64,000 nucleotides of DNA from Bacteroidales bacterium (GTDB lineage Bacteria > Bacteroidota > Bacteroidia > Bacteroidales > UBA3824): assembly GCA_017535325.1 (NCBI GenBank), contig JAFXUC010000124.1:1-64000 (forward strand), in the 5' to 3' direction. Positions within the stretch are counted from its first letter, which is position 1; each line of letters opens with the position of its first letter. A model generated the notes under the pieces. It ran no database searches, had not been told where the DNA came from, and saw nothing but the letters and a program-made list of their open reading frames with translations. The position numbers and the translations under genes are program-made. Shown here piece after piece: positions 24,050-62,273 of this stretch.

Positions 24050-24124
24050 GGGAGTATAGCTCAGTTGGTTCAGAGCATCTGCCTTACAAGCAGAGGGTCA
24101 TAGGTTCGAATCCTGTTACTCCCA
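24050..24124 (+). tRNA. tRNA-Val (anticodon TAC), copy 1
   Basis: A complete cloverleaf: acceptor GGGAGTA with TACTCCC, D-arm AGCTC...GAGC, anticodon loop CTTACAA (anticodon TAC, reads GUA and related valine codons), T-loop TTCGAAT. CCA is not encoded. Discriminator base A. Confidence 0.95.
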
Positions 24125-24166
24125 CATAATTTTTCTCGTAGTTTTTATTTGATTAGTAAAACTTTT

Positions 24167-24241
24167 GGGAGTATAGCTCAGTTGGTTCAGAGCATCTGCC
24201 TTACAAGCAGAGGGTCATAGGTTCGAATCCTGTTACTCCCA
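24167..24241 (+). tRNA. tRNA-Val (anticodon TAC), copy 2
   Basis: Identical in all 75 bases to copy 1, starting 117 bases further on. The 42-base spacer is AT-rich and has no promoter that I can see, so both are probably cut from one transcript. Confidence 0.95.
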
Positions 24242-24274
24242 CTTTCTCAAATTCTTAAAATTTAAAGTTGTTGT

Positions 24275-47158: not shown

Positions 47159-48364
47159 ATGGAACTAAACGATGAAAAACTTTTGCAAATAGCGAAAGAT
47201 TTGTACAAATTATATACGGAGGAAAAAGAATCTTTACCTTACTCATTGAATTTAGTCTATGAACTCCGCGATTATGAAAACGCACATTCGCGGATACTTC
47301 GTGGATTATTACAATATAATCGTAAGGGATGTTTCCCTATTTTGCAATCATTTATTGAACGTGTTAAAGAAATTGCAGATTGCAATGTTGATATTAGGAT
47401 AAAGAAGCCTGAATTAACAAATGAGGAGCATAATATTGATTTACTTATTAAGGAAAAAAAATCTTATGCTATAATAGTCGAGAATAAAATATGGAATGCT
47501 CGTGACCAAAACAAACAAATAGAAAGATATGTGGATTATGTAAAGGATTTGGGTATTCCCAAAAGAAAAATTTTTGTCATTTATTTGACCCAAGACGGAC
47601 AAAAAGAAATATCTGACAATAGTTTGACACCAATGGTTCAAAAAATTCTTGGATGTACCAATAGAAGCAAGAGGCGTTTCATACCTATGAATTATAAATA
47701 TGATATTATGCCATGGCTTGAAGAACTCCTAAGAAACAAGTATATTCAAGATGAACCTTTATTACAGTCAGCAGTTATTCAATATGTTGATTATCTTAAA
47801 ATACTATTTGATGCACGCAAAGAAGATATAGAAATTGAAAATAAATTAGAAGAAAAACTTATGAACGACCTTAATATAAAATCCATTCAAGAACTATTGC
47901 AAACGAGGAATGAAGTGGACAAATTACAAGAGATTGTTACAAATACAACAGATAATAAAATCGAAGAATTATGCAAGAAAAAGATATATAATGTTCTTAA
48001 AAGGAGAGGTTATGAAATAAAAAAAATTGTGTTTCAATATGATTCTTTTGACCTTGAAATTCAAGTCCCCAAATGGGAAAAATGTTGGTGGTCAATAGAA
48101 AATGATGAAAATGAAAGTAACAAACTTTTCTTCGGTATTTGGAAAGATCCCCAAAAAACAATCGCAAAAAAATATATAAAAAAATTAGAATATGTTTTTG
48201 ATAATGTCCAAGACGAAGGATATATTGGATGGGAATGGTTTGGTGAATATGAATTGAATGATGAATTTTGGCTTAATATTGAAACTCATTCAACAAAATT
48301 TGTCAATGCAATTGTGAGAGATTTAGAGAGAATACGAGAAAATACAGAAGAATTAAATTTGTAA
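47159..48364 (+). CDS. PD-(D/E)XK nuclease-superfamily protein (PDDEXK_4-like)
   Basis: A 401-residue protein. EEHNIDLLIKEKKSYAIIVENKIWN (near residues 87-113) gives the core Asp and the ExK motif (VENK) of the PDDEXK_4 family, followed by a Gln-rich IERYVDYV helix. The second half is helical and ends with a domain shared with that family. Its codon use is visibly richer in A and T than that of the neighbouring genes, a sign of separate transfer. Function unknown; defence or phage-related roles are known for the family. Confidence 0.8.
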   Translation: MELNDEKLLQIAKDLYKLYTEEKESLPYSLNLVYELRDYENAHSRILRGLLQYNRKGCFPILQSFIERVKEIADCNVDIRIKKPELTNEEHNIDLLIKEKKSYAIIVENKIWNARDQNKQIERYVDYVKDLGIPKRKIFVIYLTQDGQKEISDNSLTPMVQKILGCTNRSKRRFIPMNYKYDIMPWLEELLRNKYIQDEPLLQSAVIQYVDYLKILFDARKEDIEIENKLEEKLMNDLNIKSIQELLQTRNEVDKLQEIVTNTTDNKIEELCKKKIYNVLKRRGYEIKKIVFQYDSFDLEIQVPKWEKCWWSIENDENESNKLFFGIWKDPQKTIAKKYIKKLEYVFDNVQDEGYIGWEWFGEYELNDEFWLNIETHSTKFVNAIVRDLERIRENTEELNL

Positions 48365-48407: not shown

Positions 48408-48416
48408 TATATTTGC
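48408..48416 (+). promoter_or_regulatory. -7 box of the AAA-ATPase/nuclease gene
   Basis: TATATTTGC in a 59-base region (48372-48430) nearly identical to the promoter region at 46143-46198; both continue as GCGGCAAAACT. Confidence 0.6.
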
Positions 48417-48442
48417 GGCAAAACTTAAAAAAGGTCAGAACT

Positions 48443-50002
48443 ATGGCAGCACCTCATAAATATCCTACCGGACGCGCGGATTTTGAGTCAATTATCAACG
48501 AGGGTTTTCTTTACGTTGACAAGACGGAGAGAATGTACGAAATGATTGGCGACAGAAAATTCGTATTTCTTTCACGTCCGAGACGGTTTGGAAAGTCATT
48601 ATTGGTTAATACTTTACGCGCTTATTTCGAGGGGAAAAAAGAACTTTTCAAAGGTCTTAAAATTTCTCAATACGAAAAAGACTGGATTCAATATCCCGTG
48701 ATTGCGTTTGATATGTCGGCGGTAAAAGACGAAACGATTGCCGATATGCCAAAGGCAATAGGACTGCAATTTGAAGAATTTGAAAAGAAATATTCCATAC
48801 CTGTTGACAGGACTTTAAGTAACGGAGTACGTCTTTTAAATTTTATAAAAAGTGTCAAGGCACAGACCGGCAAAAACGTTGTAGTCCTCATTGATGAATA
48901 TGACGCGCCGCTCAACGCACATCTTCACGACGGAAAACTCAGCGAAGTAAAAGCAATCTTACAAAATCTCTATCAGCAGTTGAAAGTTTGCGAAAAAGAC
49001 GAGCGTTTTGTTTTTATAACGGGAATTTCAAAATTTTCGCAGGTTTCGATTTTTTCCACAATCAACAACCTTGAAAAAATTGCAATGTTGGATGAATATT
49101 CAGACCTTTGCGGCATAACAAAGAACGAACTTCTGACTTATTTCAAGGAAGATATTGAAATGCTGGCTGAAAAATTCAAGTGCAGTTTTGAAGAAATAAT
49201 CGAAAAGTTGAAATTTCAGTACGACGGCTATCATTTCAGCGAAAATTCGCCTGATATTTTCAACCCGACAAGCATTTTGACGGCTTTCAAGGAAAAGAAA
49301 CTTGACAATCATTGGTTTGAAACCGCAACGTCAAGTTATATTATAGAACATCTTAAACGTCATCATGCTGATATTCTGAAACTTGTACCCAAAAAGTTAT
49401 TCAAGGAGGATTTTGATGTTTCGCCCGAAGATTATGACAGTCTTTGGCCTATACTTTATCAGGCAGGTTATCTGACAATCAAGGATTTTGACGAAGAACG
49501 CTGTGTTTTTACTCTGGATTATCCTAACAATGAGGTTCGTATAGGCATGATGCAGAATATGCTGAAATACTATTTTCCGCAAAATCTTTCATCAGGAAAG
49601 ATGTCAATGCAGCAGTTTTATTTTGCCTTGAAAGCCGGTCAGATTGACGAGGCGATGACTTATTTAAAAGACTTTTTGTCTGAAATTCCCAATATCTTGA
49701 ACAATAAAGAGGAAAAGCATTTTCAAACGATTTTGTACGTGCTTTTTACGTGGCTTGGTTTTTACACGGAAGTTGAGGTCAATACGGCGGTCGGACGCAC
49801 TGATGTTGTCATAAAAAATCCGAAAAACATTTTTGTCATTGAACTTAAAGTTGACGGTTCTGCACAGGAAGCGTTAGACCAAATCAACTCCAAAAACTAT
49901 CTGATACCTTATAAATATGACGGCCGCACGGTTGTAAAAATCGGCGTGAATATTTCCTCCGAAAATAATGTCAGAACAATTACGGAGTGGAAAGCAGAGT
50001 AA
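48443..50002 (+). CDS. AAA-ATPase-like protein with C-terminal PD-(D/E)XK domain
   Basis: A 519-residue protein of the PF09820 type. FVFLSRPRRFGKSLLVNTL (near residues 35-53) is the Walker A region, VVLIDEYDAPL the Walker B. A C-terminal domain with VGRTDVVIKNPKNIFVIELKVDG (near residues 450-475) carries Asp and ELK of the PDDEXK_9 nuclease fold. Such genes are found in many copies in Bacteroidota and look selfish or defensive. ATG 48443 gives the start MAAPHKYPTG; the upstream in-frame start at 48413 lies at the promoter. Confidence 0.88.
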   Translation: MAAPHKYPTGRADFESIINEGFLYVDKTERMYEMIGDRKFVFLSRPRRFGKSLLVNTLRAYFEGKKELFKGLKISQYEKDWIQYPVIAFDMSAVKDETIADMPKAIGLQFEEFEKKYSIPVDRTLSNGVRLLNFIKSVKAQTGKNVVVLIDEYDAPLNAHLHDGKLSEVKAILQNLYQQLKVCEKDERFVFITGISKFSQVSIFSTINNLEKIAMLDEYSDLCGITKNELLTYFKEDIEMLAEKFKCSFEEIIEKLKFQYDGYHFSENSPDIFNPTSILTAFKEKKLDNHWFETATSSYIIEHLKRHHADILKLVPKKLFKEDFDVSPEDYDSLWPILYQAGYLTIKDFDEERCVFTLDYPNNEVRIGMMQNMLKYYFPQNLSSGKMSMQQFYFALKAGQIDEAMTYLKDFLSEIPNILNNKEEKHFQTILYVLFTWLGFYTEVEVNTAVGRTDVVIKNPKNIFVIELKVDGSAQEALDQINSKNYLIPYKYDGRTVVKIGVNISSENNVRTITEWKAE

Positions 50003-51811: not shown

Positions 51812-51876
51812 TTTTTGATTTTTATGTGCGGAAAAATCGCAAAACTTCATATTTTTCCGCACGTAAGAATCAAAAA
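51812..51876. repeat. Hairpin repeat, copy 1
   Basis: Two 26-base arms (51812-51837 and 51851-51876) that are near-perfect reverse complements, with a 13-base loop. The arms share the core ATGTGCGGAAAAAT. It lies one base past the ACT gene's stop and could also end transcription of paaK-ACT. The same sequence recurs at 52633-52690. The right arm overlaps the last bases of the DUF2442 gene. Confidence 0.75.
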
Positions 51877-52280
51877 TTTTTCAAAGCGTTTACGATTTTA
51901 TTAAACCTTTCTGGCGAAGGCTTTTTAATACCGTAAATATATTTTTGAAGCAAAGTTTTATGAATGCCTGCACCGGCGGCGACTGCATTTAAATTCGTAT
52001 CGGGGTATTTCTTGAAAATTTTTGCGGTATCGTTGTCATAGTCGGGTTCTTGCGTTTCATAAAAACTTTCGATTGAAATATCTTCGTCAATATCCGGCCA
52101 GTGAATTTCATCTGCATAAAGTCCGATTTCAAAACGTTGCCGCTGAGTTTCAGAAGCCTCTTTTAAAAGCGGAAAAGCCTCCAACGGACGGCTCAAAACG
52201 TTTGCTTTGTCCGTCTTAATATAAATGCGGTTGTCAGAAAACCAGACTTTTATAATTTTTTCGTCCATAATTTTATTCAT
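51870..52280 (-). CDS. DUF2442-domain protein with C-terminal HTH
   Basis: A 136-residue protein. The first part (IKVWFSDNRIYIKTDKANVLSRPLEAFPLLKEASETQRQRFEI) is the DUF2442 domain; the end (NLNAVAAGAGIHKTLLQKYIYGIKKPSPERFNKIVNAL) is an XRE-like helix-turn-helix. ATG 52280 overlaps the stop of the DUF4160 gene. The pair DUF4160-DUF2442 is widespread and often suggested to be a toxin-antitoxin-like unit, but this is not proven. Confidence 0.82.
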   Translation of the reverse strand: MNKIMDEKIIKVWFSDNRIYIKTDKANVLSRPLEAFPLLKEASETQRQRFEIGLYADEIHWPDIDEDISIESFYETQEPDYDNDTAKIFKKYPDTNLNAVAAGAGIHKTLLQKYIYGIKKPSPERFNKIVNALKNF

Positions 52281-52506
52281 CAAAATATTCGTGCCACGAC
52301 TTTATAATATCTTCTTTGTATTGTTTTACGGCATCAACGGCGCGTTTCAAATCTTTCGGTTTAATGCCTTTGTTTTCAACAACTTCCGCTGTTTCTACAA
52401 CAATTTTCGCCCGACCGTCGCCGTTGGAAACATGAATGTGAACCGGCAAATGTTCGTCGGAATAAAAATAAAAGCGTAAACCAAATAAAAATAAAATTGT
52501 CGGCAT
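52273..52506 (-). CDS. DUF4160-family protein
   Basis: A 77-residue protein with the DUF4160 signature: MPTILFLFGLRFYFYSDEHLPVHIHVSNGDGRAKI, with the His-Ile-His pair in HLPVHIHV. It is followed by the DUF2442 gene with an eight-base overlap, and the two are almost certainly translated together. Proposed to be the partner of a toxin-antitoxin-like module; no activity is established. Confidence 0.85.
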   Translation of the reverse strand: MPTILFLFGLRFYFYSDEHLPVHIHVSNGDGRAKIVVETAEVVENKGIKPKDLKRAVDAVKQYKEDIIKSWHEYFDE

Positions 52507-52540: not shown

Positions 52541-52631
52541 AGCGGGAAACAAGGCTCGAACTCGTATCCTCGCGATTACATATCGCGCGCTCTTCCATTG
52601 GAGAATAAATACTCCATTAAGCTATTCCCGC
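52541..52631 (-). tRNA. Abnormal tRNA-like sequence 1 (anticodon position TGT)
   Basis: Acceptor GCGGGAA/TTCCCGC, T-arm (ACGAG-TTCGAGC-CTTGT), anticodon stem CGCGA/TCGCG and D-stem GCTT/GAGC all pair. But the D-loop is 26 bases instead of 8-11 because it contains a small hairpin (TGGAG ... CTCCA), and base 33, normally T, is A (loop TATGTAA). With the normal register the anticodon is TGT. Whether it is a working tRNA is doubtful. Confidence 0.55.
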
Positions 52632-52632
52632 A

Positions 52633-52690
52633 TTTTTTATGTGCGCAAAAATACTAACTTTTCCGATTTTTCCGCACATAAAAATCAAAA
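52633..52690. repeat. Hairpin repeat, copy 2
   Basis: Left arm TTTTTTATGTGCGCAAAAAT (52633-52652) and right arm (52666-52690) match the element at 51812-51876; the right arm is the reverse complement of that copy's left arm over about 25 bases. It directly abuts the tRNA-like sequence 1. The two copies enclose the DUF4160/DUF2442 pair. Confidence 0.75.
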
Positions 52691-52704
52691 TTTTCTAAAA
52701 AACT

Positions 52705-52766
52705 ACAAAAGTCGTATCACTTTTGTAAAAACTTTTGCAAAAGTCATATCACTTTTGTAAATTTGC
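52705..52766 (+). promoter_or_regulatory. Paired operators and promoter of the DUF4143 ATPase gene
   Basis: Two dyads, ACAAAAGT-N6-ACTTTTGT (52705-52726) and GCAAAAGT-N6-ACTTTTGT (52737-52758), are spaced 32 bases centre to centre. The second abuts a -7 box TAAATTTGC (52758-52766), seven bases before the ATG at 52773. This is the layout expected for a tightly repressed gene. Confidence 0.7.
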
Positions 52767-52772
52767 GGCATT

Positions 52773-54125
52773 ATGAAACGGGACATTTTAGACAAATTAA
52801 TTGAATGGAAAAACAGCGGCAGACGAAAACCGCTGATTCTTTCCGGTGTGCGTCAGTGCGGTAAAACTCATACCCTCAGAGAGTTCGGTGAAAAATATTT
52901 TAAAAACGTCTGCTATATAAACTTTGAGGCTGACAGCAAGTTTGCAGCCGTTTTTGATTACGATTATGACACAGAACGTATTGTAAACGAAATTTCGCTG
53001 CTTAGAAACTGCAAAATCACTGACGGCGAAACCCTTTTGATTTTTGATGAAATTCAGGAGGCTCCACGCGCAATCACCGCTTTGAAATATTTTTGTGAAA
53101 ACCGTCCCGGACTTCATCTCGCGTGCGCAGGTTCGCTGCTTGGTGTCGCGCTGAAACATCAAAATATTTCGTTCCCTGTCGGTAAAGTCAACAGAATCAA
53201 GATGTTGCCTATGAATTTTAAAGAGTTTGTTACTGCTGTTGACGGCGAACAATATATAAAATTGTTTTCTTCGTGGCCTCTTGGCAGAGAAATTCCGCCG
53301 GTTTATACCCAAAAATTAGAACGTCTGCTGAAAGAATATTACGTTGTCGGCGGTATGCCTGAGGCTGTCAAGGAATACGCTGAAACTAAAAATTTTGAAA
53401 CCGTCGCACAGATTCAGGACGAAATTTTGGCGGATTATGCCGATGATTTTTCAAAACACGCGCCTGTTTCCGAAATCGAAAAAATCCGTTTGGTTTGGGA
53501 TTCCGTGCCGAAACAGTTGGCAAAGGAGAACAACAAATTTGTCTTTTCGCACGTCAAAGAGGGCAAACGCGCTCACGAGTTGGAAGGCGCGTTGCAATGG
53601 CTCAAAAATGCCGGATTGGTACATCTTGTTGAACTCGTTCAAAACGCTGAAAGTCCGCTTTCTGCATACGCCGACGCTACATATTTCAAGGTTTACGCTT
53701 CGGATGTCGGACTGCTTTGCCGACGTCTTGGAATGGGCTATAAAAATTATTTTGAGGACGGCGGGCTTCAAACCGCTTTCAAAGGCGCGGTTACGGAAAA
53801 TTATGTTTTGAACGAACTTTTGAACCTTTCTTATCAGCCGTATTTTTGGCGGTCGGGCAACAGTGCCGAACTGGATTTTTTGTTTGACAATTCCGGAGAA
53901 GTGATTCCCGTAGAAGTCAAGGCGGCAACCAATACTCAGGCAAAGAGTTACAAACAGTTTTGTAAAAAATTCAAGGTGAAAAGCGGTTTTAAACTGTCAC
54001 TCAAAAACATCGCTGTCAACGACTGTGAAGGTACTGCGACAATCAGTCTTCCGTTGTATTTGCAGTGGAATATGAAAAGCTTTTTGTGCGGGGAGCAGGA
54101 GTCGAACCCGGCGTTTCAACCTTAA
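52773..54125 (+). CDS. DUF4143-type AAA ATPase with PD-(D/E)XK-like end
   Basis: A 450-residue protein. Walker A is GVRQCGKTHT (near residue 20), Walker B is LLIFDEIQEAP (near residue 88). The DUF4143 region follows, and a C-terminal FWRSGNSAELDFLFDNSGEVIPVEVKAAT (near residues 370-400) has Asp and EVK of a nuclease fold. A normal end would be near LPLYLQWNM; the last 13 residues (FLCGEQESNPAFQP) are read from a tRNA-like sequence on the other strand (54087-54159), showing that the original 3' end was lost or replaced. Confidence 0.85.
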   Translation: MKRDILDKLIEWKNSGRRKPLILSGVRQCGKTHTLREFGEKYFKNVCYINFEADSKFAAVFDYDYDTERIVNEISLLRNCKITDGETLLIFDEIQEAPRAITALKYFCENRPGLHLACAGSLLGVALKHQNISFPVGKVNRIKMLPMNFKEFVTAVDGEQYIKLFSSWPLGREIPPVYTQKLERLLKEYYVVGGMPEAVKEYAETKNFETVAQIQDEILADYADDFSKHAPVSEIEKIRLVWDSVPKQLAKENNKFVFSHVKEGKRAHELEGALQWLKNAGLVHLVELVQNAESPLSAYADATYFKVYASDVGLLCRRLGMGYKNYFEDGGLQTAFKGAVTENYVLNELLNLSYQPYFWRSGNSAELDFLFDNSGEVIPVEVKAATNTQAKSYKQFCKKFKVKSGFKLSLKNIAVNDCEGTATISLPLYLQWNMKSFLCGEQESNPAFQP

Positions 54126-54159
54126 CTAAGTTGTGTTCTATCCACTGAACTATCCCCAC
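54087..54159 (-). tRNA. Abnormal tRNA-like sequence 2 (anticodon position GTT)
   Basis: A 73-base cloverleaf: GTGGGGA/TCCCCGC (one G-T pair), D-arm GTTC-AGTGGATA-GAAC, anticodon stem CAACT/GGTTG and loop TAGTTAA (anticodon GTT, base 33 is A not T), T-arm with a mismatch in its first pair. The D-arm is Arg-like while the anticodon is that of Asn. A normal length, so possibly functional, but the A33 and the T-stem mismatch are unusual. Confidence 0.5.
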
Positions 54160-54178
54160 AAAGGATAAGAAAAAATTG

Positions 54179-54305
54179 AGCGGGAAACAAGATTCGAACT
54201 CGTGTCTTCCGCACATACTACTTATATGAAGTGTTTATCAAAATAAATAATATGTGCGGTGCTCTAACCATTGGCAGAAATGCTCTGCCACTAAGCTATT
54301 CCCGC
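54179..54305 (-). tRNA. Abnormal tRNA-like sequence 3 (expanded anticodon and D arms)
   Basis: Ends match sequence 1 (GCGGGAA/TTCCCGC, T-arm ACGAG-TTCGAAT-CTTGT). The D-loop is 28 bases and holds a hairpin GGCAG-AGCATTT-CTGCC. The anticodon stem CCGCA/TGCGG encloses 41 bases, partly paired, instead of 7, so no anticodon can be assigned. This is either a decayed tRNA or a tRNA-like RNA of another role. Confidence 0.5.
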
Positions 54306-54370
54306 ATTTTTAAGTTGCGGCGCAAAAATAGAACTAATTTTTGTCTTTACAAAATTTGCCGAAAGTTTTT

Positions 54371-54402
54371 TTGTAATATTTTGAAATTCGTGCTACCTTT
54401 GC
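54371..54402 (+). promoter_or_regulatory. Promoter of the aminotransferase gene
   Basis: TTG (54371-54373), 20 bases, TACCTTTGC (54394-54402), a strong -33/-7 match, about 30 bases before the ATG at 54434. Confidence 0.65.
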
Positions 54403-54433
54403 AGCAAATTAAACTTATTTGCAAAAAATTGTA

Positions 54434-55726
54434 ATGGACAGAAGCATTGTAAATCAGACGATTAAAGAAATGGGGCTTGAAGATTTTTCAAGCGTTACAA
54501 TCCGCGACATCGCAAAACTTTCCAAAAAACTTGAAGCGGTAACCGGCGAAAAATTCGTTCATTTGGAAATGGGCGTTCCGGGTTTGAAACCTTCAGAAAT
54601 CGGTGTCAACGCCGAAATCGAAGCCCTGAAAAACAACTGCGCACAGACTTACGCACCAAACGACGGAATCCCCGAAATCAAAAACGCCGCATCAAAATTC
54701 GTTAAAGCGTTCATTGACTTGGACATAGACCCGCTTTGCTGTATGCCGACCACGGGTTCGATGCAGGGAACGTTTGCGGTTTTTACGACCTTGAAACATG
54801 CCGACCCGAAAAAAGATACGGTTTTGTTTCTTCACCCCGGCTTTCCCGTTCAGACAACGCAGTGCGAGGTTATCGGTCTGAAAACCAAAGGTTTGGATAT
54901 TTATAATTACCGTGGCGAAAAACTTATTGAAGCCTTGGAGAAAATTCTCTCGGAAGGCGGCGTGTGCGGACTTGTTTACTCAAATCCCAACAATCCGTCA
55001 TGGGTTTGTTTTACTGCCGAGGAGTTAAAAGGAATTGGCAAATTGGCAACCAAATTTGATGTGGTTGTTTTGGAAGATTTGGCATATTTTGCGATGGATT
55101 TCCGCAAAGATTTGTCAAAACCGTTTACTGCGCCTTTTCAGCCGTCGGTCGGAAAATATACAGACAATTACGTGCTAAGTATTTCAGGTTCAAAGGCTTT
55201 CTCGTATGCTGGACAGAGAATCGGCGTAAGTTGCATTTCAAACGCGCTTTATCATAGAAAGTTTGAAAATTTATCAGAAAAATTCGGCGTTGCAGAGTTC
55301 GGTAACTTTATGGCTAACAGAGTTTTATATACGTTGTCAAGCGGCGTAACACATTCCACTCAGTATGCTATGGCGGCGATGATGAACGCGGCAAGCGAAG
55401 GCAGATATAATTTCTTAGCGGACGTTAAAGAATACGGCAGACGCGCCAAATTTATGAAAGACGTTTTGCTCGAAAACGGTTTTTACTTGGTTTACGACAA
55501 CGACATGGGCGAGCCTTTGGCGGACGGATTTTATTTCACGGTTCAGTATCCTGACATGACGGCTGTCGAACTGACAAAAGAACTGATGTTTTACGGCGTT
55601 TCTGTTTTTCCGCTCAACACGATGGGGTCAAACGAACAGGGCGTAAGAATCTGCACGTCGTTTTTCCACGAAAGCCTGCAAAGCGCGTTCAAGGAGAGAA
55701 TCGAAAAATTCAGAAAGGAACACTAA
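54434..55726 (+). CDS. PLP-dependent aminotransferase, class I/II
   Basis: A 430-residue fold-type I enzyme. Features in order: HLEMGVPGLKP near the start, TGSMQGTFAVF (cofactor phosphate region), YSNPNNPSW near residue 190, LEDLAYFAMD (aspartate that binds the pyridine nitrogen) and SISGSKAFSYAGQRIG with the Schiff-base lysine near residue 257. The substrate is unknown. It stops 76 bases before the KS-CLF gene, which has its own promoter, so it may or may not belong to the polyene cluster. Confidence 0.9.
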   Translation: MDRSIVNQTIKEMGLEDFSSVTIRDIAKLSKKLEAVTGEKFVHLEMGVPGLKPSEIGVNAEIEALKNNCAQTYAPNDGIPEIKNAASKFVKAFIDLDIDPLCCMPTTGSMQGTFAVFTTLKHADPKKDTVLFLHPGFPVQTTQCEVIGLKTKGLDIYNYRGEKLIEALEKILSEGGVCGLVYSNPNNPSWVCFTAEELKGIGKLATKFDVVVLEDLAYFAMDFRKDLSKPFTAPFQPSVGKYTDNYVLSISGSKAFSYAGQRIGVSCISNALYHRKFENLSEKFGVAEFGNFMANRVLYTLSSGVTHSTQYAMAAMMNAASEGRYNFLADVKEYGRRAKFMKDVLLENGFYLVYDNDMGEPLADGFYFTVQYPDMTAVELTKELMFYGVSVFPLNTMGSNEQGVRICTSFFHESLQSAFKERIEKFRKEH

Positions 55727-55752
55727 TGATTTTGAACTGCGAAAATTAATTT

Positions 55753-55782
55753 TTGCAGTTCAAAATTTGTTTGTACCTTTGC
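55753..55782 (+). promoter_or_regulatory. Promoter of the polyene-type operon
   Basis: TTG (55753-55755), 18 bases, TACCTTTGC (55774-55782). The ATG of the KS-CLF gene is 20 bases further on. Confidence 0.6.
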
Positions 55783-55802
55783 ATTCGGATTTTGGCTTTA
55801 AT

Positions 55803-57434
55803 ATGTGCAAAAACATCGTCATAACAGGTTACGGCATAATTTCGGCAACGGAAATAAAGGAAATCAAACATCTTGATTTTCAAGGTTTTACGTATCCTGT
55901 CGGTGAAGTGGATTTTTCTGATTCTGAGTTAAAAAATCAATTAGAAATTGCGGAAGATAAGACCGTCAGCCGCACTGCTTTGCTCGGCATTTTTGCGGTA
56001 AAACAAGCCGCTGAAAACGCCGGTGTTTCTCTTCAAACTTCCGGCAGAAAATTTCTTGTTTCCGGGACAACGGTCGGCGGTATGGATTTGACCGAAAAAT
56101 ATTGGCAGGATATTTACAATCATGCTGATATAATGAGACAGCACGACTCAGGAAGTTGCACGGAATTAATGGGAGAATATTTCGGCTTTTTTGACGATAA
56201 GACTACTATTTCCACCGCTTGTTCGTCGGGCGCAAACGCTATTCTTTTAGGTGCGGAATTGTTGAAAGCTGACAAGGTTGACATAGTTTTTGCGGGTGGG
56301 GCAGAAGCGTTGACAAAGTTTCATTTGTCGGGATTTGCCTCGCTTATGATTTTGGACAAAGAGGTTTGCAGACCTTTTGCTGACGACCGCGCGGGATTGA
56401 ATCTCGGCGAAGGCGCGGCGTTTTTGGTTATGGAAACCGAAGAACACGCCAAAGAGCGCGGTGCAAAAATTCTGTGCCGTTTCAGCGGCGGCGGCAACGC
56501 TTGCGACGCTTTTCACCAGACGGCATCTTCACCAAACGGCGAAGGCGCATATCTCGCTATGACAGAGGCTCTTAAAAACGCCAGCTTGTCACCTGATGAC
56601 ATACAGTATGTCAACGCCCACGGAACGGGAACTGTCAACAACGACGAAAGCGAAAAAGCGGCTTTGAAAAGAGTTTTCGGCGAAAACCTGCCGCAAATCG
56701 AAAGCACAAAAAACATAACGGGTCATACCACGAGCGCGGCTGGTGCGATTGAGGCGGTTATCTGCGTTAAAAAAATTTTAGGCAATCCGGCGTTTAAAAA
56801 CGTGATGGACAACTCTTTCGGCTTTGGCGGCAACGATACATCGCTGATTTTTTCGGCGTTGGAGTTGGAGTGCGGGCATCCCTGCCCGCCAATGGCAGGC
56901 GAGGATGCCTGCACTCCACAAGTTGCGGCAAAAGTTGAATTAACCCAAGAGGACGAAATCGATGAGATAAAAAAAATCTTAAAACCTGCTGAATACCGCC
57001 GCATGGGAAAACTGTTGAAAAGTTCGCTTTTGACATCGCTCAAAGCCTTGAAACAAAGCGGCATAACTACGCCTGATGCAATCATCACGGCAACTTCGCT
57101 CGGCTGTTGGGAAAATTCCGAAAAGATTTTGGATAATTTATCAGAGCCTAAACCGACACTTTTCATGCAGAGCACTCACAACACAATCGGCTCTAACATA
57201 GCGATTTACTTAAAATGCCACGGTTACAATATCACTTATACTCAGGGTTCAGAGTCGCTTGACAAGGCGTTAAGAGACGCTAAAATGCTGCTCGAAAGCG
57301 GCAAATGCAAAAACGTACTTGTCGGACTGCATGAGGAAACCACTGAAAAATACCGCGCCTTAATGCAAAAAAACGGCGTAACGGATTTAAAATCAATTTA
57401 TTCACTGTCACTTGTCTTAACCCGGAAACTATGA
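55803..57434 (+). CDS. Fused beta-ketoacyl synthase and chain-length-factor protein
   Basis: A 543-residue protein with two parts. Residues 1-355 are a complete KS with Cys140 (TACSSG), His273 (NAHGTGT) and His308 (ITGHTTS). Residues about 385-543 match the N-terminal-type KS/chain-length-factor domain seen in aryl polyene clusters (SLGCWENSEKIL, STHNTIGSNIAIYLKCHG), lacking catalytic residues. They are joined by a linker (about 356-375) that is entirely encoded by an inserted palindrome at 56867-56917. It is the first gene of a probable KS-CLF, LolA, GT-AT, MMPL operon (four-base overlap with the next). Confidence 0.88.
   Translation: MCKNIVITGYGIISATEIKEIKHLDFQGFTYPVGEVDFSDSELKNQLEIAEDKTVSRTALLGIFAVKQAAENAGVSLQTSGRKFLVSGTTVGGMDLTEKYWQDIYNHADIMRQHDSGSCTELMGEYFGFFDDKTTISTACSSGANAILLGAELLKADKVDIVFAGGAEALTKFHLSGFASLMILDKEVCRPFADDRAGLNLGEGAAFLVMETEEHAKERGAKILCRFSGGGNACDAFHQTASSPNGEGAYLAMTEALKNASLSPDDIQYVNAHGTGTVNNDESEKAALKRVFGENLPQIESTKNITGHTTSAAGAIEAVICVKKILGNPAFKNVMDNSFGFGGNDTSLIFSALELECGHPCPPMAGEDACTPQVAAKVELTQEDEIDEIKKILKPAEYRRMGKLLKSSLLTSLKALKQSGITTPDAIITATSLGCWENSEKILDNLSEPKPTLFMQSTHNTIGSNIAIYLKCHGYNITYTQGSESLDKALRDAKMLLESGKCKNVLVGLHEETTEKYRALMQKNGVTDLKSIYSLSLVLTRKL
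56867..56917. repeat. REP-like palindrome inserted in frame in the KS-CLF gene
   Basis: Two 24-base arms (56867-56890 and 56894-56917) around AAT, matching as reverse complements in 20 of 24 positions. The insertion keeps the frame and adds about 17 residues (ECGHPCPPMAGEDACTPQ). GC content is much higher than in the host gene. Sequences of this shape occur as dispersed repeats in several bacterial phyla. Confidence 0.8.
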
Positions 57435-58000
57435 AAAAAACTTTTTTATTTTTTATTTTTGCCTGCTTTGTTTTTTCGTTTTCGTTTGCGCAAAACTCTG
57501 ACATCAAGCGGCAAATCAGCGAAAAAGCCTTGTCAATAGAAAGTCTTGAATGTGATTTTGTCCAGACAAAACATCTGAAAGTTCTTAACAACGAACTTGT
57601 CAGCCGGGGCAAAATGTATTATCTTAAAGGCGGAAAACTGCGTTGGGAATATTTGGAGCCGCAGTCCACCGTCTTTGCTATCAACGGCAAAGACGACCCG
57701 AACCGTATCAAGGCAAAGGCGGCGGCTATGATTCTTGACTTGGTAAGCGGCGGCTGTTTAAACGACGGAAGCGGTTTTGAAAGTTCTGTTGAGGAAAAAG
57801 ACGGTTTTTATTCCGTCGAACTTCTGCCAAAACGCAGGGAAATCAAAATGTTGTTTGACAAAATAACGCTTAGTTTCGATAAAAAAACGCTGCTTGTTTC
57901 AAGGGCTGAGTTAGCAGCAAAAAACACGGACGTTACTACCGTTGAGTTCAAAAATTTGCAAATCGGAGCAGACATACCCTCTGACATTTTTAAACATTAA
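57431..58000 (+). CDS. LolA-like outer-membrane lipoprotein carrier
   Basis: A 189-residue periplasmic protein with a signal peptide (to about residue 20, FAQN). The body (SLECDFVQTKHLKVLNNELVSRGKMYYLKGGKLRWEYLEPQ) matches LolA-type hydrophobic carriers. In aryl-polyene clusters a LolA-like protein carries the lipid product across the periplasm. It overlaps the KS-CLF stop by four bases. Confidence 0.85.
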   Translation: MKKTFLFFIFACFVFSFSFAQNSDIKRQISEKALSIESLECDFVQTKHLKVLNNELVSRGKMYYLKGGKLRWEYLEPQSTVFAINGKDDPNRIKAKAAAMILDLVSGGCLNDGSGFESSVEEKDGFYSVELLPKRREIKMLFDKITLSFDKKTLLVSRAELAAKNTDVTTVEFKNLQIGADIPSDIFKH

Positions 58001-58009
58001 AAAACGCTG

Positions 58010-59491
58010 ATGGAAAACCAAAGGAAACTGCTGAAAAACAGAGGAATATGCGTTGTGATACCCGTTTATAACAATGAGAGGACAATTCAGGACGTTGTAA
58101 AAAGAAGTCTCGAAAACTGCTCTGACGTGATTGTTGTAAACGACGGTAGCACCGACTCCACAGGCGTAATTTTGCGCGGAATCTCTGACATTACTTTGGT
58201 GGAATATCCCGAAAACAAAGGCAAAGGTTATGCCTTGAAATGTGGTTTTAGAAAGGCTTTGGAACTCGGTTTTTCGTATGCTATAACTCTTGACGGCGAC
58301 GGTCAGCATTTTCCCGAAGACATTGCTAAGTTTTTGAATGTCAACATAAAACACCCCGGTGCAATTATTGTCGGACATAGAAATCTTGACGGTGTGGAGC
58401 GCAGAAAGGGCAGCGGTTTTGCTAACAAATTCGCTAACTTTTGGTTCACCGTTCAGACTTTCAAAAGACTTGATACTCAGTCTGGTTTTAGACTTTATCC
58501 GATAAAAAAAATCCACGGACTTAACATATTATCAGCACGTTACGAGGCAGAATTGGAACTTTTAGTACTTTCTTCTTGGCACGGCGTTGATATTTTTGCC
58601 GTCCCGATTAACGTTGCTTATCCCGAAGATAGGGTTAGTCATTTCCGCCCCGGTCGCGACTTTATGAGAATAAGTGTGTTAAACACAATTCTATGTATTG
58701 TCGGCTTGGTTTACGCTTTACCGATAGGAATTTTAAGGTTTTTGTTTAAATATTTGAAAACTTTTTACGCCGTTTTTGTCTTCATTGTTTGCTCAGTTGT
58801 TTTTATAACGCCCGGCGTTTGGCTCTATGTCAAAATGGGAAAAATGACTGAGAAAAAGCAACTTGGACTTCACAAATTCATTCAGAATGTCGCAAAATTT
58901 ATAATGATTTGGCATGGTGTTCCAGGTGCAAAATTTTCTTTTCAAATTCACGAAAAAGCGGATTTGGATACTCCGAAAGTCATTATTTGCAACCATCAAT
59001 CGGTTTTTGACGCGGTTTGTCAACTGACACTTAATCCGAAAATAATTTTTCTGACAAATTCCCGCGTTTGGAACAATCCCTTTTACGGTTTTGTTATCCG
59101 AAACGCCGAATATTATCCCGTAACCGACGGAATCGACAAACTTATTCCTGAACTTCAAGACCTTGTGAAACGGGGATACAGCATAGCGGTTTATCCCGAA
59201 GGAACGCGCTCAACTGATTGTAAGATAGGGCGTTTTCATCAAGGCGCGTTTTACATTGCCAAACAACTCGGCGTTGATATTTTGCCGATGTGTCTTTATG
59301 GCACGGGAAAAGTTTTGCCGAAAAACGCTTGGCTGCTCAGAAAAAGCCCCGTTTACTTGGAAGTTTCTGAACCGTTTTCGCGCGAAAGACTTGATGAAAT
59401 CGGCGACGAGTTGCAGCAGGCTTCTTTTATGAGGAAAAAAATTAGAGAAAAATATTCCGAAATTTCTAATAGAATCGAACAAAATGTCTGA
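58010..59491 (+). CDS. Fused GT2 glycosyltransferase and acyltransferase
   Basis: A 493-residue protein. Residues 1-250 are a GT-A fold family 2 domain (VVIPVYNNERTIQDVV, VVNDGSTDSTG, LDGDGQHFP as the DxD site). Two or more spans follow (residues about 240-280). Residues about 300-493 are a PlsC-like acyltransferase with NHQSVFD (HxxxxD, near residue 328) and YPEGTRS (near residue 395). This fusion is typical of aryl-polyene and flexirubin clusters, where it would attach the chain to a glycolipid-like anchor. It overlaps the MMPL gene by eight bases. Confidence 0.9.
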   Translation: MENQRKLLKNRGICVVIPVYNNERTIQDVVKRSLENCSDVIVVNDGSTDSTGVILRGISDITLVEYPENKGKGYALKCGFRKALELGFSYAITLDGDGQHFPEDIAKFLNVNIKHPGAIIVGHRNLDGVERRKGSGFANKFANFWFTVQTFKRLDTQSGFRLYPIKKIHGLNILSARYEAELELLVLSSWHGVDIFAVPINVAYPEDRVSHFRPGRDFMRISVLNTILCIVGLVYALPIGILRFLFKYLKTFYAVFVFIVCSVVFITPGVWLYVKMGKMTEKKQLGLHKFIQNVAKFIMIWHGVPGAKFSFQIHEKADLDTPKVIICNHQSVFDAVCQLTLNPKIIFLTNSRVWNNPFYGFVIRNAEYYPVTDGIDKLIPELQDLVKRGYSIAVYPEGTRSTDCKIGRFHQGAFYIAKQLGVDILPMCLYGTGKVLPKNAWLLRKSPVYLEVSEPFSRERLDEIGDELQQASFMRKKIREKYSEISNRIEQNV

Positions 59492-62273
59492 CTTTATTCT
59501 TAAAGTTTATAATTTTTTGAAGGCGCACCGCTTTTTGCGGAATTTTTTACTTTTGTTTTTAACGGCTGTTTTGGTTATTTTGTCGCTAAGGCAGAAATGT
59601 AGCGAAGATATTTTTGATTTTCTCCCGGTAGAAGATGATTATAGGCACGCAATGCAAATTTATCAAAAAAATTCGGGTGCTGACCGCATTATCGGAATTT
59701 TTTCATTGAAAGATACTTCCGAGTTTTTGCCTGATGAAATTTCAGAGGCAATCGGCAGTTTTGAAGAAGTTTTGGAAAAAAATGACAAAGAAAAAATCGT
59801 CAAAAACTTGGTTTCAAGTGCGGATTTAGAAAAACTCAACTTCTTGAATGACTTTGTGTTAGATAATATCCCATTTTTTTTGAGCGATGACGATTTTTTA
59901 AGTTTTGACTCTCTTTTTTCTGCGCCTTTTTTTGTAGAAGACGGTGTTAAAAGTTTGAAACGGTCTTTGTCTTCTGGTTTTATGGATGTTTTTTCTCAAA
60001 ATTTTCAGAAAGACCCTTTGAACTTGTTTTCATCTAAGTGTCAAGGCTTTATGCAGATGACGGACGGCGCGGCGTTAGAAATTTATGACGGCCGAATTTT
60101 TTCTTCTGATATGAAATTTGCCATCGTAACCTTAACTTCTCCTTTCGGGTCGGGTGAAAGCGGAAACAACGCAAAACTTCTTGACCTTTTGGAAAATTCG
60201 GCGAATGAGGCTTTGGAAAAATTTCCTGAGGTAAAAGTGGTTTTTACGGGTGGACCTGTTATCGCCGTCGGCAATTCGTCGCAAATTCAGAGCGATACGG
60301 TTTTGTCTGTTATACTTTCCTTAATTTTGATTCTGTTTTTGCTTATAATTCAGTTTAAAAGTCTGAAAAACATATTGTTAATAGTTTTGTCAGTGGCATG
60401 GGGCTGGCTGTTTGCGTTTGGAGTTTTGTCGCTGTTAACGGACGGAATTTCAATAATTGTTGTCGGGATTTCGTCGGTGATTTTGGGAATTGCGGTCAAC
60501 TATCCGCTGCATTTTGTGGCACATCTTAATCACACGCCCGACATCAAAACCGCTCTAAAAGAGATAGTTATGCCGCTTGTTGTGGGCAACGTTACGACTG
60601 TCGGAGCGTTTTTGGCGTTAGTGCCTGCGGGGGCGGCGGCGTTAAAAGATTTGGGACTTTTCAGCGCGTTGCTGCTTATCGGGACTATTGTTTTTGTGCT
60701 TGTTTTTTTGCCGCATTTTGCGGGTGTCAGCCATGAAAAACACGGGAAAATGTTTCCCGATTTTTCGCCTGAAAAAAATCGCGGCGTTGTAATTGCGGTT
60801 TTGGTTTTGACGGCGGGGCTGCTTTTTTTCAGTTTCGGCGTTAAATTCGACTCCGATTTGAGCCACATAAATTTTATGACCGAAACGCAAAAAAACGCTT
60901 TGAAACAACTTCAAACAATGTCTGTTACAACGTCTTCTAATGAGGTTTACGCGGTTTCTTCGGGAGAGGATTTTGATGCGGCGGGGCGTTTTAACGGCGA
61001 AATTTTAAAGAATTATGACAGTTTGAAAGCGGTCGGAAAATTGTCCAAAATATCAAGTTGCCGCGACTTTTTACCGTCAACAAGCCTTCAAAAACACCGC
61101 TTGGAACTTTGGAAAAATTTTGCTCAAAAATATGCCGTAGAAATAGAAACCCGTTTAACAAAAGCCGCTGAAAACGAGGGTTTTACGGCTGGCGTTTTTG
61201 ATGATTTTTTTAAAATTTTAAAAGCGGAATATCAAGAAAAAAGTATAGAAAATTTTTCGCCGCTCATTAACAGCGTTTTTGCAAAAAATATTGTTGTTGA
61301 CACCGTAAAAAATGAATGTAATATTGTTGATATTCTGAAAGTTAACGACGGTTTTGACGGCGAAAACTTAAAACGGTTTGCAAATGTTTTTGACATAAAA
61401 TCGCTAAATTCTGCGGCGTCGGAAAGTCTTTCTGACAACTTTAATTATATCGGTTGGGCGTGCGGTGCGATTGTGTTTTTCTTTCTTTGGTTTTCGCTCG
61501 GAAGCGTTGAACTTGCGCTTTTGTCGTTTTTGCCGATGGCGGTGAGTTGGATTTGGATTTTGGGACTGATGTCGCTTTTTGACATTCAGTTCAACCTTGT
61601 GAACGTGATTTTGGCGACCTTTATTTTCGGTCAGGGCGACGATTATACGATTTTTATAACCGAGGGCTGTCAGTGGGAATACGCTTACAGGCGCAAAATG
61701 CTTTCGTCGTACAAAGAGAGCATTATAATGTCGGCGTTGATAATGTTTGCGGGGATTGGCACGCTTATTTTTGCAAAACATCCGGCTCTGTTTTCGTTGG
61801 CGCAGATAACGGTTGCGGGTATGTTTTCTGTGGTTTTCTCGGCATATATTTTTCCTCCGCTGATTTTTAAGTTTTTGGTTTCAAAAGGTGGAAAATTAAG
61901 AAAACGTCCGTTGACATTGAAGAATATTATTGTAAAAGATAGTAGCGTAAAATCATGGATAAAAGATTGTTACAGATATAAAGGTTTGGAAATTTATTAT
62001 AGTGTAAAAAAACGCTTAAAAACTTACGGAGATTTTTCTTTCAATAGTGATGTCGTGTTTTTCAAAAACAGCAAAGCGGGGGAAGTGTGCCTTTTAGCAG
62101 CGTTAAAAAATCCGCAAATAAGAGTTTTCGGATTTGAAGAAGACCCTGATAATTTGACAGTTGCAAAGATTGTTGCTGAAACGGTTGACGCCAAAAACGT
62201 AGAATTTTTACCTATGGCAGAGTTTGAAAAAATTAGGGAAAAATATCCGGCGGCAGAGGTAAAAATCCTGTGA
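59484..62273 (+). CDS. MMPL/RND-family exporter with a methyltransferase-like tail
   Basis: A 929-residue membrane protein with about twelve spans in two halves: a first half with a large extracytoplasmic loop (about 40-250) and spans near 265-420, and a second half with a loop (about 450-650) and spans near 655-800, including FGQGDDYTIFITEG. Residues about 815-929 are soluble: a segment GEVCLLAALKNPQIRVFGFEEDPDNLTVAKIV looks like a degenerate Rossmann-type SAM domain. It would move the polyene lipid across the inner membrane. The next gene is 74 bases on. Confidence 0.85.
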   Translation: MSDFILKVYNFLKAHRFLRNFLLLFLTAVLVILSLRQKCSEDIFDFLPVEDDYRHAMQIYQKNSGADRIIGIFSLKDTSEFLPDEISEAIGSFEEVLEKNDKEKIVKNLVSSADLEKLNFLNDFVLDNIPFFLSDDDFLSFDSLFSAPFFVEDGVKSLKRSLSSGFMDVFSQNFQKDPLNLFSSKCQGFMQMTDGAALEIYDGRIFSSDMKFAIVTLTSPFGSGESGNNAKLLDLLENSANEALEKFPEVKVVFTGGPVIAVGNSSQIQSDTVLSVILSLILILFLLIIQFKSLKNILLIVLSVAWGWLFAFGVLSLLTDGISIIVVGISSVILGIAVNYPLHFVAHLNHTPDIKTALKEIVMPLVVGNVTTVGAFLALVPAGAAALKDLGLFSALLLIGTIVFVLVFLPHFAGVSHEKHGKMFPDFSPEKNRGVVIAVLVLTAGLLFFSFGVKFDSDLSHINFMTETQKNALKQLQTMSVTTSSNEVYAVSSGEDFDAAGRFNGEILKNYDSLKAVGKLSKISSCRDFLPSTSLQKHRLELWKNFAQKYAVEIETRLTKAAENEGFTAGVFDDFFKILKAEYQEKSIENFSPLINSVFAKNIVVDTVKNECNIVDILKVNDGFDGENLKRFANVFDIKSLNSAASESLSDNFNYIGWACGAIVFFFLWFSLGSVELALLSFLPMAVSWIWILGLMSLFDIQFNLVNVILATFIFGQGDDYTIFITEGCQWEYAYRRKMLSSYKESIIMSALIMFAGIGTLIFAKHPALFSLAQITVAGMFSVVFSAYIFPPLIFKFLVSKGGKLRKRPLTLKNIIVKDSSVKSWIKDCYRYKGLEIYYSVKKRLKTYGDFSFNSDVVFFKNSKAGEVCLLAALKNPQIRVFGFEEDPDNLTVAKIVAETVDAKNVEFLPMAEFEKIREKYPAAEVKIL

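What the first reader, a model, noticed from the sequence alone, without database searches (positions are those of the whole stretch)
52541..54305. Three tRNA-like sequences with extra arms around an ATPase gene
Seen: sequences at 52541-52631, 54087-54159 and 54179-54305, all on the minus strand, keep acceptor, D and T stems. Two of them carry a small hairpin inside the D-loop (26 and 28 bases, both ending CCAATGG), sequence 3 has 41 bases in place of the anticodon loop, and sequences 1 and 2 have A instead of T at position 33. Known: bacterial tRNAs almost never have D-loops of this size and U33 is near-universal. Inference: either decaying tRNA genes caught in a mobile island or a family of tRNA-like RNAs with another role, since the same D-loop design appears twice.
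Basis: partly seen in the sequence, partly recalled or inferred. Interest (0 to 1): 0.75.

Follow-up and report, generated by a model that had tools for sequence, protein, structure and literature searches.

The report
Non-decoding tRNA-like RNAs with added hairpins
A group of rumen bacteria carries small RNA genes that are remodelled copies of the glycine transfer RNA: the core is kept and looks transcribed, but extra hairpins replace the part that reads the genetic code, so these RNAs probably do something other than make protein.

Summary
In detail: three tRNA-like sequences (w1, w2, w3) lie where stated and are among the four weakest of 49 tRNA matches in the genome. They are not simply decaying genes. 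About 35 relatives occur in 13 of 18 genomes of the same rumen Bacteroidales genus, and none in sampled genomes of the rest of the order (295) or phylum (395). All look like remodelled tRNA-Gly. Cloverleaf core, elbow contacts and a Bacteroidetes-type promoter are kept; in w1, w3 and most relatives the D-loop carries a hairpin (loop 26-93 nt) 5' of G18G19, and the anticodon arm is replaced by varied hairpins, 17 bp in w3 (fold z -9.7). Stems show compensatory changes (6 pairs; 0 of 500 shuffles). T-stem pairs that set EF-Tu affinity are weakened in 35 of 35. Elements form arrays, exchange arms, and sit where accessory genes (toxin-antitoxin modules, ATPases) are inserted; the window's ATPase is such cargo. 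Best reading: transcribed, non-decoding RNAs on a tRNA-Gly scaffold. Processing is inferred, the cellular role is unknown, and there are no expression data. w2 is the most degraded of the three.

The parts
52541..52631 (-). w1: tRNA-like element (91 nt), tRNA-Gly type acceptor (G1-C72, C2-G71, G3-C70, U73), 26-nt D-loop with hairpin, anticodon arm CGCGAU-AUGUA-AUCGCG with A33
   Evidence: Rfam 46.5 bits; model R1 79.2 bits (w1 is in the model); fold z -2.1; A15-U48 in place of G15-C48
52600..52615 (-). w1 D-loop hairpin GGAG..CUCC
   Evidence: sequence and fold
52646..52653 (-). w1 promoter -7 element TATTTTTG (TAnnTTTG), starting 22 nt upstream of the 5' end
   Evidence: same placement at other elements and at ordinary tRNAs
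54179..54305 (-). w3: tRNA-like element (127 nt), 28-nt D-loop with hairpin and a 51-nt anticodon-arm hairpin; first of the w3-w2 array
   Evidence: Rfam 42.9 bits; R1 94.3 bits (w3 is in the model); fold z -9.0; relatives of the same type in 7 other genomes
54209..54259 (-). w3 replaced anticodon arm, 17-bp helix with a short apical hairpin
   Evidence: fold z -9.7; two pairs with compensatory change among relatives (alignment)
54273..54289 (-). w3 D-loop hairpin GGCAG..CUGCC, 5' of G18G19
   Evidence: fold z -3.4
54323..54330 (-). w3 promoter -7 element TATTTTTG, starting 25 nt upstream of the 5' end
54087..54159 (-). w2: tRNA-like element (73 nt), second in the array 3' of w3; anticodon arm CAACTTAGTTAAGGTTG is that of tRNA-Gly-GCC with C31U, U33A, C35U, C36U; one T-stem mismatch (C49.C65)
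   Evidence: relatives with a U2-A71 acceptor and the same or a similar arm in G004, G001, G008, G015, G016
52773..54125 (+). AAA_14/DUF4143 ATPase ORF; accessory cargo between w1 and w2; its frame runs into w2 antisense
   Evidence: PF13173 and PF13635; 17 DUF4143 matches in the genome
52273..52506 (-). 77-aa ORF starting 34 nt 3' of w1 on the same strand, no TAnnTTTG in between (probable co-transcript with w1)
51870..52283 (-). DUF2442 gene, next in the same direction
   Evidence: PF10387, 1.6e-14

Best explanation
The three sequences belong to a genus-restricted family of transcribed, non-decoding tRNA-like RNA genes descended from tRNA-Gly. The RNA is made from a tRNA-type Bacteroidetes promoter, singly or as a polycistronic array, and folds into a tRNA body with an intact acceptor, T arm and D/T elbow. 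By inference it is cut out by RNase P and the tRNA 3'-processing enzymes. The D-loop (5' of G18G19) and the anticodon arm are sites where extra hairpins are mounted; the arms are exchanged between copies and species. Decoding is lost (no anticodon loop, or A33 with a closed 5-nt loop) and the EF-Tu affinity pairs are weakened, so the RNAs most likely stay out of translation and act as stable structured RNAs that display hairpins, recombining together with small accessory-gene islands. Shown by sequence: the family, structure conservation, promoter motifs, arrays, arm exchange, cargo insertion. Inferred: transcription, processing, stability, staying outside translation. Not known: the cellular target; a regulatory or decoy RNA is my guess, with low confidence (about 0.25).
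For: Relatives: blastn, regular-expression scan of fetched loci, model R1 with 65-106 bits in 12 of 18 genus genomes, plus U2-A71 elements. Outside the genus nothing above 53.7 bits, which is ordinary 73-nt tRNA-Gly, and no match at E 1e-11 in 395 phylum genomes except the own one. Structure kept: 23 elements, 99.1% of cells paired, 6 pairs with two-sided change, 27 such cells, 0 of 500 shuffles as high; slid controls 37-60% paired. All 35 elements keep U8 and A14 and 34 keep the TTCGA T-loop; 51:63 is G.U or A-U in 35/35 against G-C in all five ordinary tRNA-Gly compared, and 49:65 changes from G-U to A-U in the GCGGG elements. S. aureus non-proteinogenic tRNA-Gly carry weak-EF-Tu changes at the same two positions (PMC4052509). 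TAnnTTTG begins 17-36 nt upstream of all 18 first-of-array GCGGG elements and of none of the 13 inner ones; about 0.01 expected per 12-position stretch, and many ordinary tRNAs have the same arrangement. w3 and its arm fold far better than shuffles. The inserted sequences are not dispersed repeats.
Against: No expression or processing data. The elements are related by descent and recombination, so the shuffle control overstates independence; about seven loci are independent. The perfect identity of w3 with G014 extends into the promoter and other identical runs exist nearby, so it reflects recombination as much as selection. The family is patchy (5 of 18 genomes lack it, some of them incomplete assemblies). 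w2, G001s2 and G016s2 each carry a stem mismatch. The GlyRS acceptor identity set is kept in most GCGGG elements, which could mean charging rather than a scaffold role.
Confidence: 0.66

Rival explanations
1. Glycyl donors outside translation: the RNAs are charged by GlyRS through the acceptor stem and supply glycine to a non-ribosomal transferase, like the Staphylococcus non-proteinogenic tRNA-Gly.
For: G1-C72, C2-G71, G3-C70 kept in all GCGGG elements and U73 in most; weak EF-Tu pairs in 35/35; precedent in PMC4052509.
Against: Bacterial GlyRS also uses C35 and C36 (PMC9976931), absent in w1, w2 and w3. U2-A71 elements and several A73 elements have lost acceptor identity. G18G19 is kept, unlike the S. 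aureus case. No transferase gene was recognised as a common neighbour.
Confidence: 0.12
2. DNA-level elements: the tRNA-like sequences matter mainly as recombination or insertion sites for small gene islands, and the hairpins act as DNA.
For: Cargo inserted at or near element 3' ends: G004 against G003 at two loci, HipBA in G010 against G016, the window against G014; a chimeric element (G004AB) and exchanged arms; element types shared by non-orthologous loci.
Against: No integrase gene was recognised among the neighbouring ORFs inspected; junctions share only a few bases (CTTTTT), not a copy of a tRNA 3' end; promoters and elbow conservation point to the RNA; only 1 of 17 DUF4143 matches is by an element.
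Confidence: 0.13
3. Decaying duplicated tRNA-Gly genes (pseudogenes), kept alike only by recent copying and recombination.
For: Elements adjoin tRNA-Gly genes at the suf locus; w2 has a T-stem mismatch; recombination is evident; ordinary tRNA-Gly genes are present.
Against: Compensatory changes in acceptor, D and T stems and in the w3-type arm; conserved elbow; promoters at the head of arrays; new long helices that decay would not create.
Confidence: 0.09
4. Small mobile palindromes (like Rickettsia palindromic elements) inserted into tRNA genes.
For: Hairpins inserted in loops of tRNA genes.
Against: All 8 exact copies of the w3 arm motif lie inside elements, and so do the four strong matches of the 67-nt D-loop insert. 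Arms differ in sequence but keep pairing.
Confidence: 0.03

Closest known systems
Allo-tRNAs and irregular allo-tRNA-like polycistrons (Mukai et al. 2017, as reviewed in PMC7609411)
   Same: Non-canonical tRNA bodies; polycistrons of irregular tRNA sequences; [quoted passage not shown] some not usable in translation; possible extra stem
   Different: Allo-tRNAs have a 12-bp acceptor branch (8/4 or 9/3), are Ser-type or Ala-type, and come from Clostridia, Proteobacteria and Acidobacteria. Here the body is a 7/5 tRNA-Gly in Bacteroidales; extra hairpins sit inside the D-loop and replace the anticodon arm
Non-proteinogenic tRNA-Gly of Staphylococcus aureus (PMC4052509)
   Same: tRNA-Gly copies with weakened EF-Tu pairs at 49:65 and 51:63
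   Different: The S. aureus isoacceptors have replaced G18G19 and take part in cell-wall synthesis as charged tRNAs; these keep G18G19 and have lost the Gly anticodon
tRNA-Gly(GCC) of the same genome
   Same: Acceptor, D and T arms, promoter type, no encoded CCA
   Different: Normal D-loop, 7-nt anticodon loop with U33, G49-U65 and G51-C63
Rickettsia palindromic elements (named from general knowledge)
   Same: Hairpins within genes
   Different: The inserts here are not dispersed repeats

Membership tests
tRNA (structural, Rfam RF00005) | Cloverleaf with 7-bp acceptor, 4-bp D stem, 5-bp T stem, TTCRA T-loop | tested here: met
   w2 has one T-stem mismatch
Translational (decoding) tRNA | 7-nt anticodon loop with U33 | tested here: not met
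   w1, w2: A33 with a closed 5-nt loop; w3: 17-bp helix. Exception in the family: G004E/G017E keep CUGUUAA with U33
Translational (decoding) tRNA | Charged and used on ribosomes | not testable with these tools
   needs tRNA sequencing or acylation assays
Allo-tRNA | 12-bp acceptor branch in 8/4 or 9/3 form | tested here: not met
   7-bp acceptor and 5-bp T stem throughout, few mismatches; definition from PMC7609411
Non-proteinogenic tRNA-Gly (S. aureus type) | Weak EF-Tu pairs at 49:65 and 51:63 | tested here: met
   51:63 weakened in 35/35, 49:65 A-U in the GCGGG elements
Non-proteinogenic tRNA-Gly (S. aureus type) | G18G19 replaced | tested here: not met
   GG kept at the 3' side of the D-loop
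Non-proteinogenic tRNA-Gly (S. aureus type) | Glycine anticodon (C35, C36) | tested here: not met
   absent in w1-w3
tRNA pseudogene | Uncompensated loss of pairing and of promoter | tested here: not met
   99.1% of cells paired, compensatory changes, promoters; w2 partly degraded
Palindromic mobile repeat | Insert sequence dispersed elsewhere in the genome | tested here: not met

The most novel reading that the evidence does not exclude
A new class of bacterial small RNA that uses the tRNA body as a natural scaffold for interchangeable hairpins in the D-loop and anticodon positions, made by the tRNA pathway and acting outside translation, carried and reshuffled with accessory-gene islands.
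Probability: 0.4. Interest if true: 0.8.

Novelty: new variant of a known kind. Interest (0 to 1): 0.62.

Why it matters
If transcribed and processed as inferred, these RNAs show that evolution has done with tRNA what engineers do with tRNA scaffolds: keep the body for processing and stability and hang new hairpins on it. They give a clear, testable case of how a tRNA gene leaves translation, with possible intermediates still present (G008F and G001F have a replaced anticodon arm but a normal D-loop). They would also be missed or misnamed by annotation: ARAGORN called w1 a tRNA-Trp, w2 a tRNA-Asn, and missed w3.

Tried and rejected
Phage or plasmid origin: blastn of w3+w2 against phages and plasmids gave only partial matches below 80% identity. 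The one viral-contig hit to the design's 5' sequence is an ordinary tRNA in a phage contig. ATPase as functional partner: rejected, 17 DUF4143 matches in the genome, one at an element, and other loci have other cargo. w3/G014 100% identity as proof of selection: rejected, the identical run is 265 bp and includes the promoter, and other long identical runs occur. Other Rfam families over the elements: only chance-level matches. Dispersed palindromes: rejected. The original Mukai 2017 paper was not held; a review was used. Two Pfam calls failed for wrong ORF ends, so the 77-aa ORF at 52273-52506 was not assigned to a family. Literature searches for D-loop insertions or tRNA-like families in Bacteroidetes found no description of this family; the library lacks most subscription journals.

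Full report
OBSERVATION. Rfam's tRNA model matches the three sequences at the stated places on the minus strand: 52541-52631 (46.5 bits), 54087-54159 (44.3) and 54179-54305 (42.9), all over the gathering score of 29. I call them w1, w2 and w3. In the whole genome (49 tRNA matches) they are among the four weakest. ARAGORN reports w1 as tRNA-Trp, w2 as tRNA-Asn and misses w3. The D-loops are 26 nt (w1), 8 nt (w2) and 28 nt (w3). w1 and w2 have A33, and their anticodon arms close to 6 bp with a 5-nt loop.

ORIGIN. w1 and w3 begin GCGGGAA and end TTCCCGC-U, as bacterial tRNA-Gly does (identity set U73, G1-C72, C2-G71, G3-C70, C35, C36: PMC9976931). The own tRNA-Gly(GCC) anticodon arm is CAACCTTGCCAAGGTTG; w2 has CAACTTAGTTAAGGTTG, that is C31U, U33A, C35U, C36U. 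Ordinary Gly tRNAs for GCC, TCC and CCC are present, so these three are not needed for decoding glycine.

RELATIVES. blastn of w3+w2 found strong matches in same-genus genomes, several as arrays. The loci, a regular-expression scan and R1 gave 35 elements of 72-167 nt that I compared. Covariance model R1, built from 14 of them, finds elements at 65-106 bits in 12 of 18 genus genomes; a thirteenth (G015) has only the U2-A71 type. Outside the genus the best score is 53.7 bits, an ordinary 73-nt tRNA-Gly, in 295 genomes of the order; in 395 genomes of the phylum only the own genome matches at E 1e-11. Named records with the 5' design are Bacteroidales assemblies, mostly from rumen, abomasum or omasum samples.

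DESIGN. Types: A (w3-like, long anticodon helix), B and C (D-loops of 75-93 nt forming a domain), D and E (short D hairpin, other short arms), F (normal D-loop, replaced arm), and the U2-A71 type (w2-like). The D-loop insert lies 5' of G18G19, which are kept, so the D/T elbow can form. All 35 elements keep U8 and A14 and 34 keep TTCGA. w1 has A15-U48 in place of G15-C48. In 23 elements 99.1% of stem cells are paired, six pairs have changes on both sides (27 cells), no shuffle of 500 reaches these values, and slid pairings give 37-60%. In the w3-type arm, CCGCACATA/TATGTGCGG becomes CCACACTTA/TAAGTGTGG in relatives: two compensatory pairs. Relatedness weakens these statistics; roughly seven loci are independent.

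ESCAPE FROM TRANSLATION. Ordinary tRNA-Gly compared here have G49-U65 and G51-C63. Every element has 51:63 as G.U or A-U, and the GCGGG elements have A49-U65. A review of S. aureus non-proteinogenic tRNA-Gly names exchange of the strong EF-Tu pairs G49-U65 and G51-C63 for A49-U65 and A51-U63 as a likely reason for escape (PMC4052509). With the loss of the anticodon this points away from decoding. That is inference; no binding was measured.

EXPRESSION SIGNALS. All 18 first-of-array GCGGG elements have TAnnTTTG, the Bacteroidetes -7 motif (general knowledge), beginning 17-36 nt upstream; none of the 13 inner elements has. Density predicts about 0.01 per 12-position stretch, and many ordinary tRNAs of this genome have the same arrangement. 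w1 and w3 each have TATTTTTG (52646-52653, 54323-54330). w2 has none and follows w3, as its relative follows an A element in G004. 3' of w1, on the same strand and without another TAnnTTTG, lie a 77-aa ORF (52273-52506) and a DUF2442 gene.

NEIGHBOURHOOD. Orthologous loci differ by cargo placed at or near the 3' end of an element: G003 has an element followed at once by the flank, where G004 has relBE-like genes, a second element and an ATPase; the suf locus of G004 has 2.7 kb more than G003; G010 has HipBA where G016 has none; the window has w2, the ATPase and w1 where G014 continues in the flank. Junctions share only a few bases. At the same locus G013 and G016 have a B element where the window and G014 have A. 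G004AB is a chimera of an A-type D hairpin and a B-type arm; G010D has another arm than its orthologues G016D and G011D. In G006 the aminotransferase follows the ACT gene directly, without elements. The ATPase in the window is one of 17 DUF4143 matches and is not a fixed partner.

CAVEAT. w3 and the G014 element are identical over 127 nt while the genes beside them are about 87% identical (aminotransferase 1125/1290), but the identical run is 265 bp and other long identical runs occur, so recombination explains it at least in part.

CONCLUSION. The family, its structure, promoter motifs, arrays and arm exchange are shown by sequence. That the RNAs are transcribed, processed by tRNA enzymes, stable and active outside translation is inferred. 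The partner or target is unknown; I favour a structured regulatory or decoy RNA on a tRNA scaffold, with glycyl-donor, DNA-level insertion site and pseudogene readings as rivals. They resemble, but do not belong to, allo-tRNAs (7/5, not 8/4 or 9/3).

Noticed in passing
24050-24125 and 24167-24242: Two tandem tRNA-Val(TAC) genes with identical sequence.
   Followed up: no
51870-52283 and 52273-52506 (minus): DUF2442 gene preceded by a 77-aa ORF that looks like DUF4160 (not tested); probably in one transcript with w1.
   Followed up: partly
window 54178-59981 against L080: Mosaic divergence: runs of 366, 265 and 161 identical bases in otherwise about 90% identical DNA, suggesting recombination between species.
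   Followed up: partly
L084 about 1075-1450: Tandem repeat of a unit like GTTTTTGTCAAGAGTGGT within a short ORF.
   Followed up: no
L082 4921-8159 and L085 6879-10218: w2-type elements lie beside tandem AAA-ATPase_like/PDDEXK_9 genes, about 15-20 nt from a gene end.
   Followed up: partly
47159-48361: PDDEXK_4 nuclease-like gene near an AAA-ATPase-like gene (48413-50002), outside the finding.
   Followed up: no
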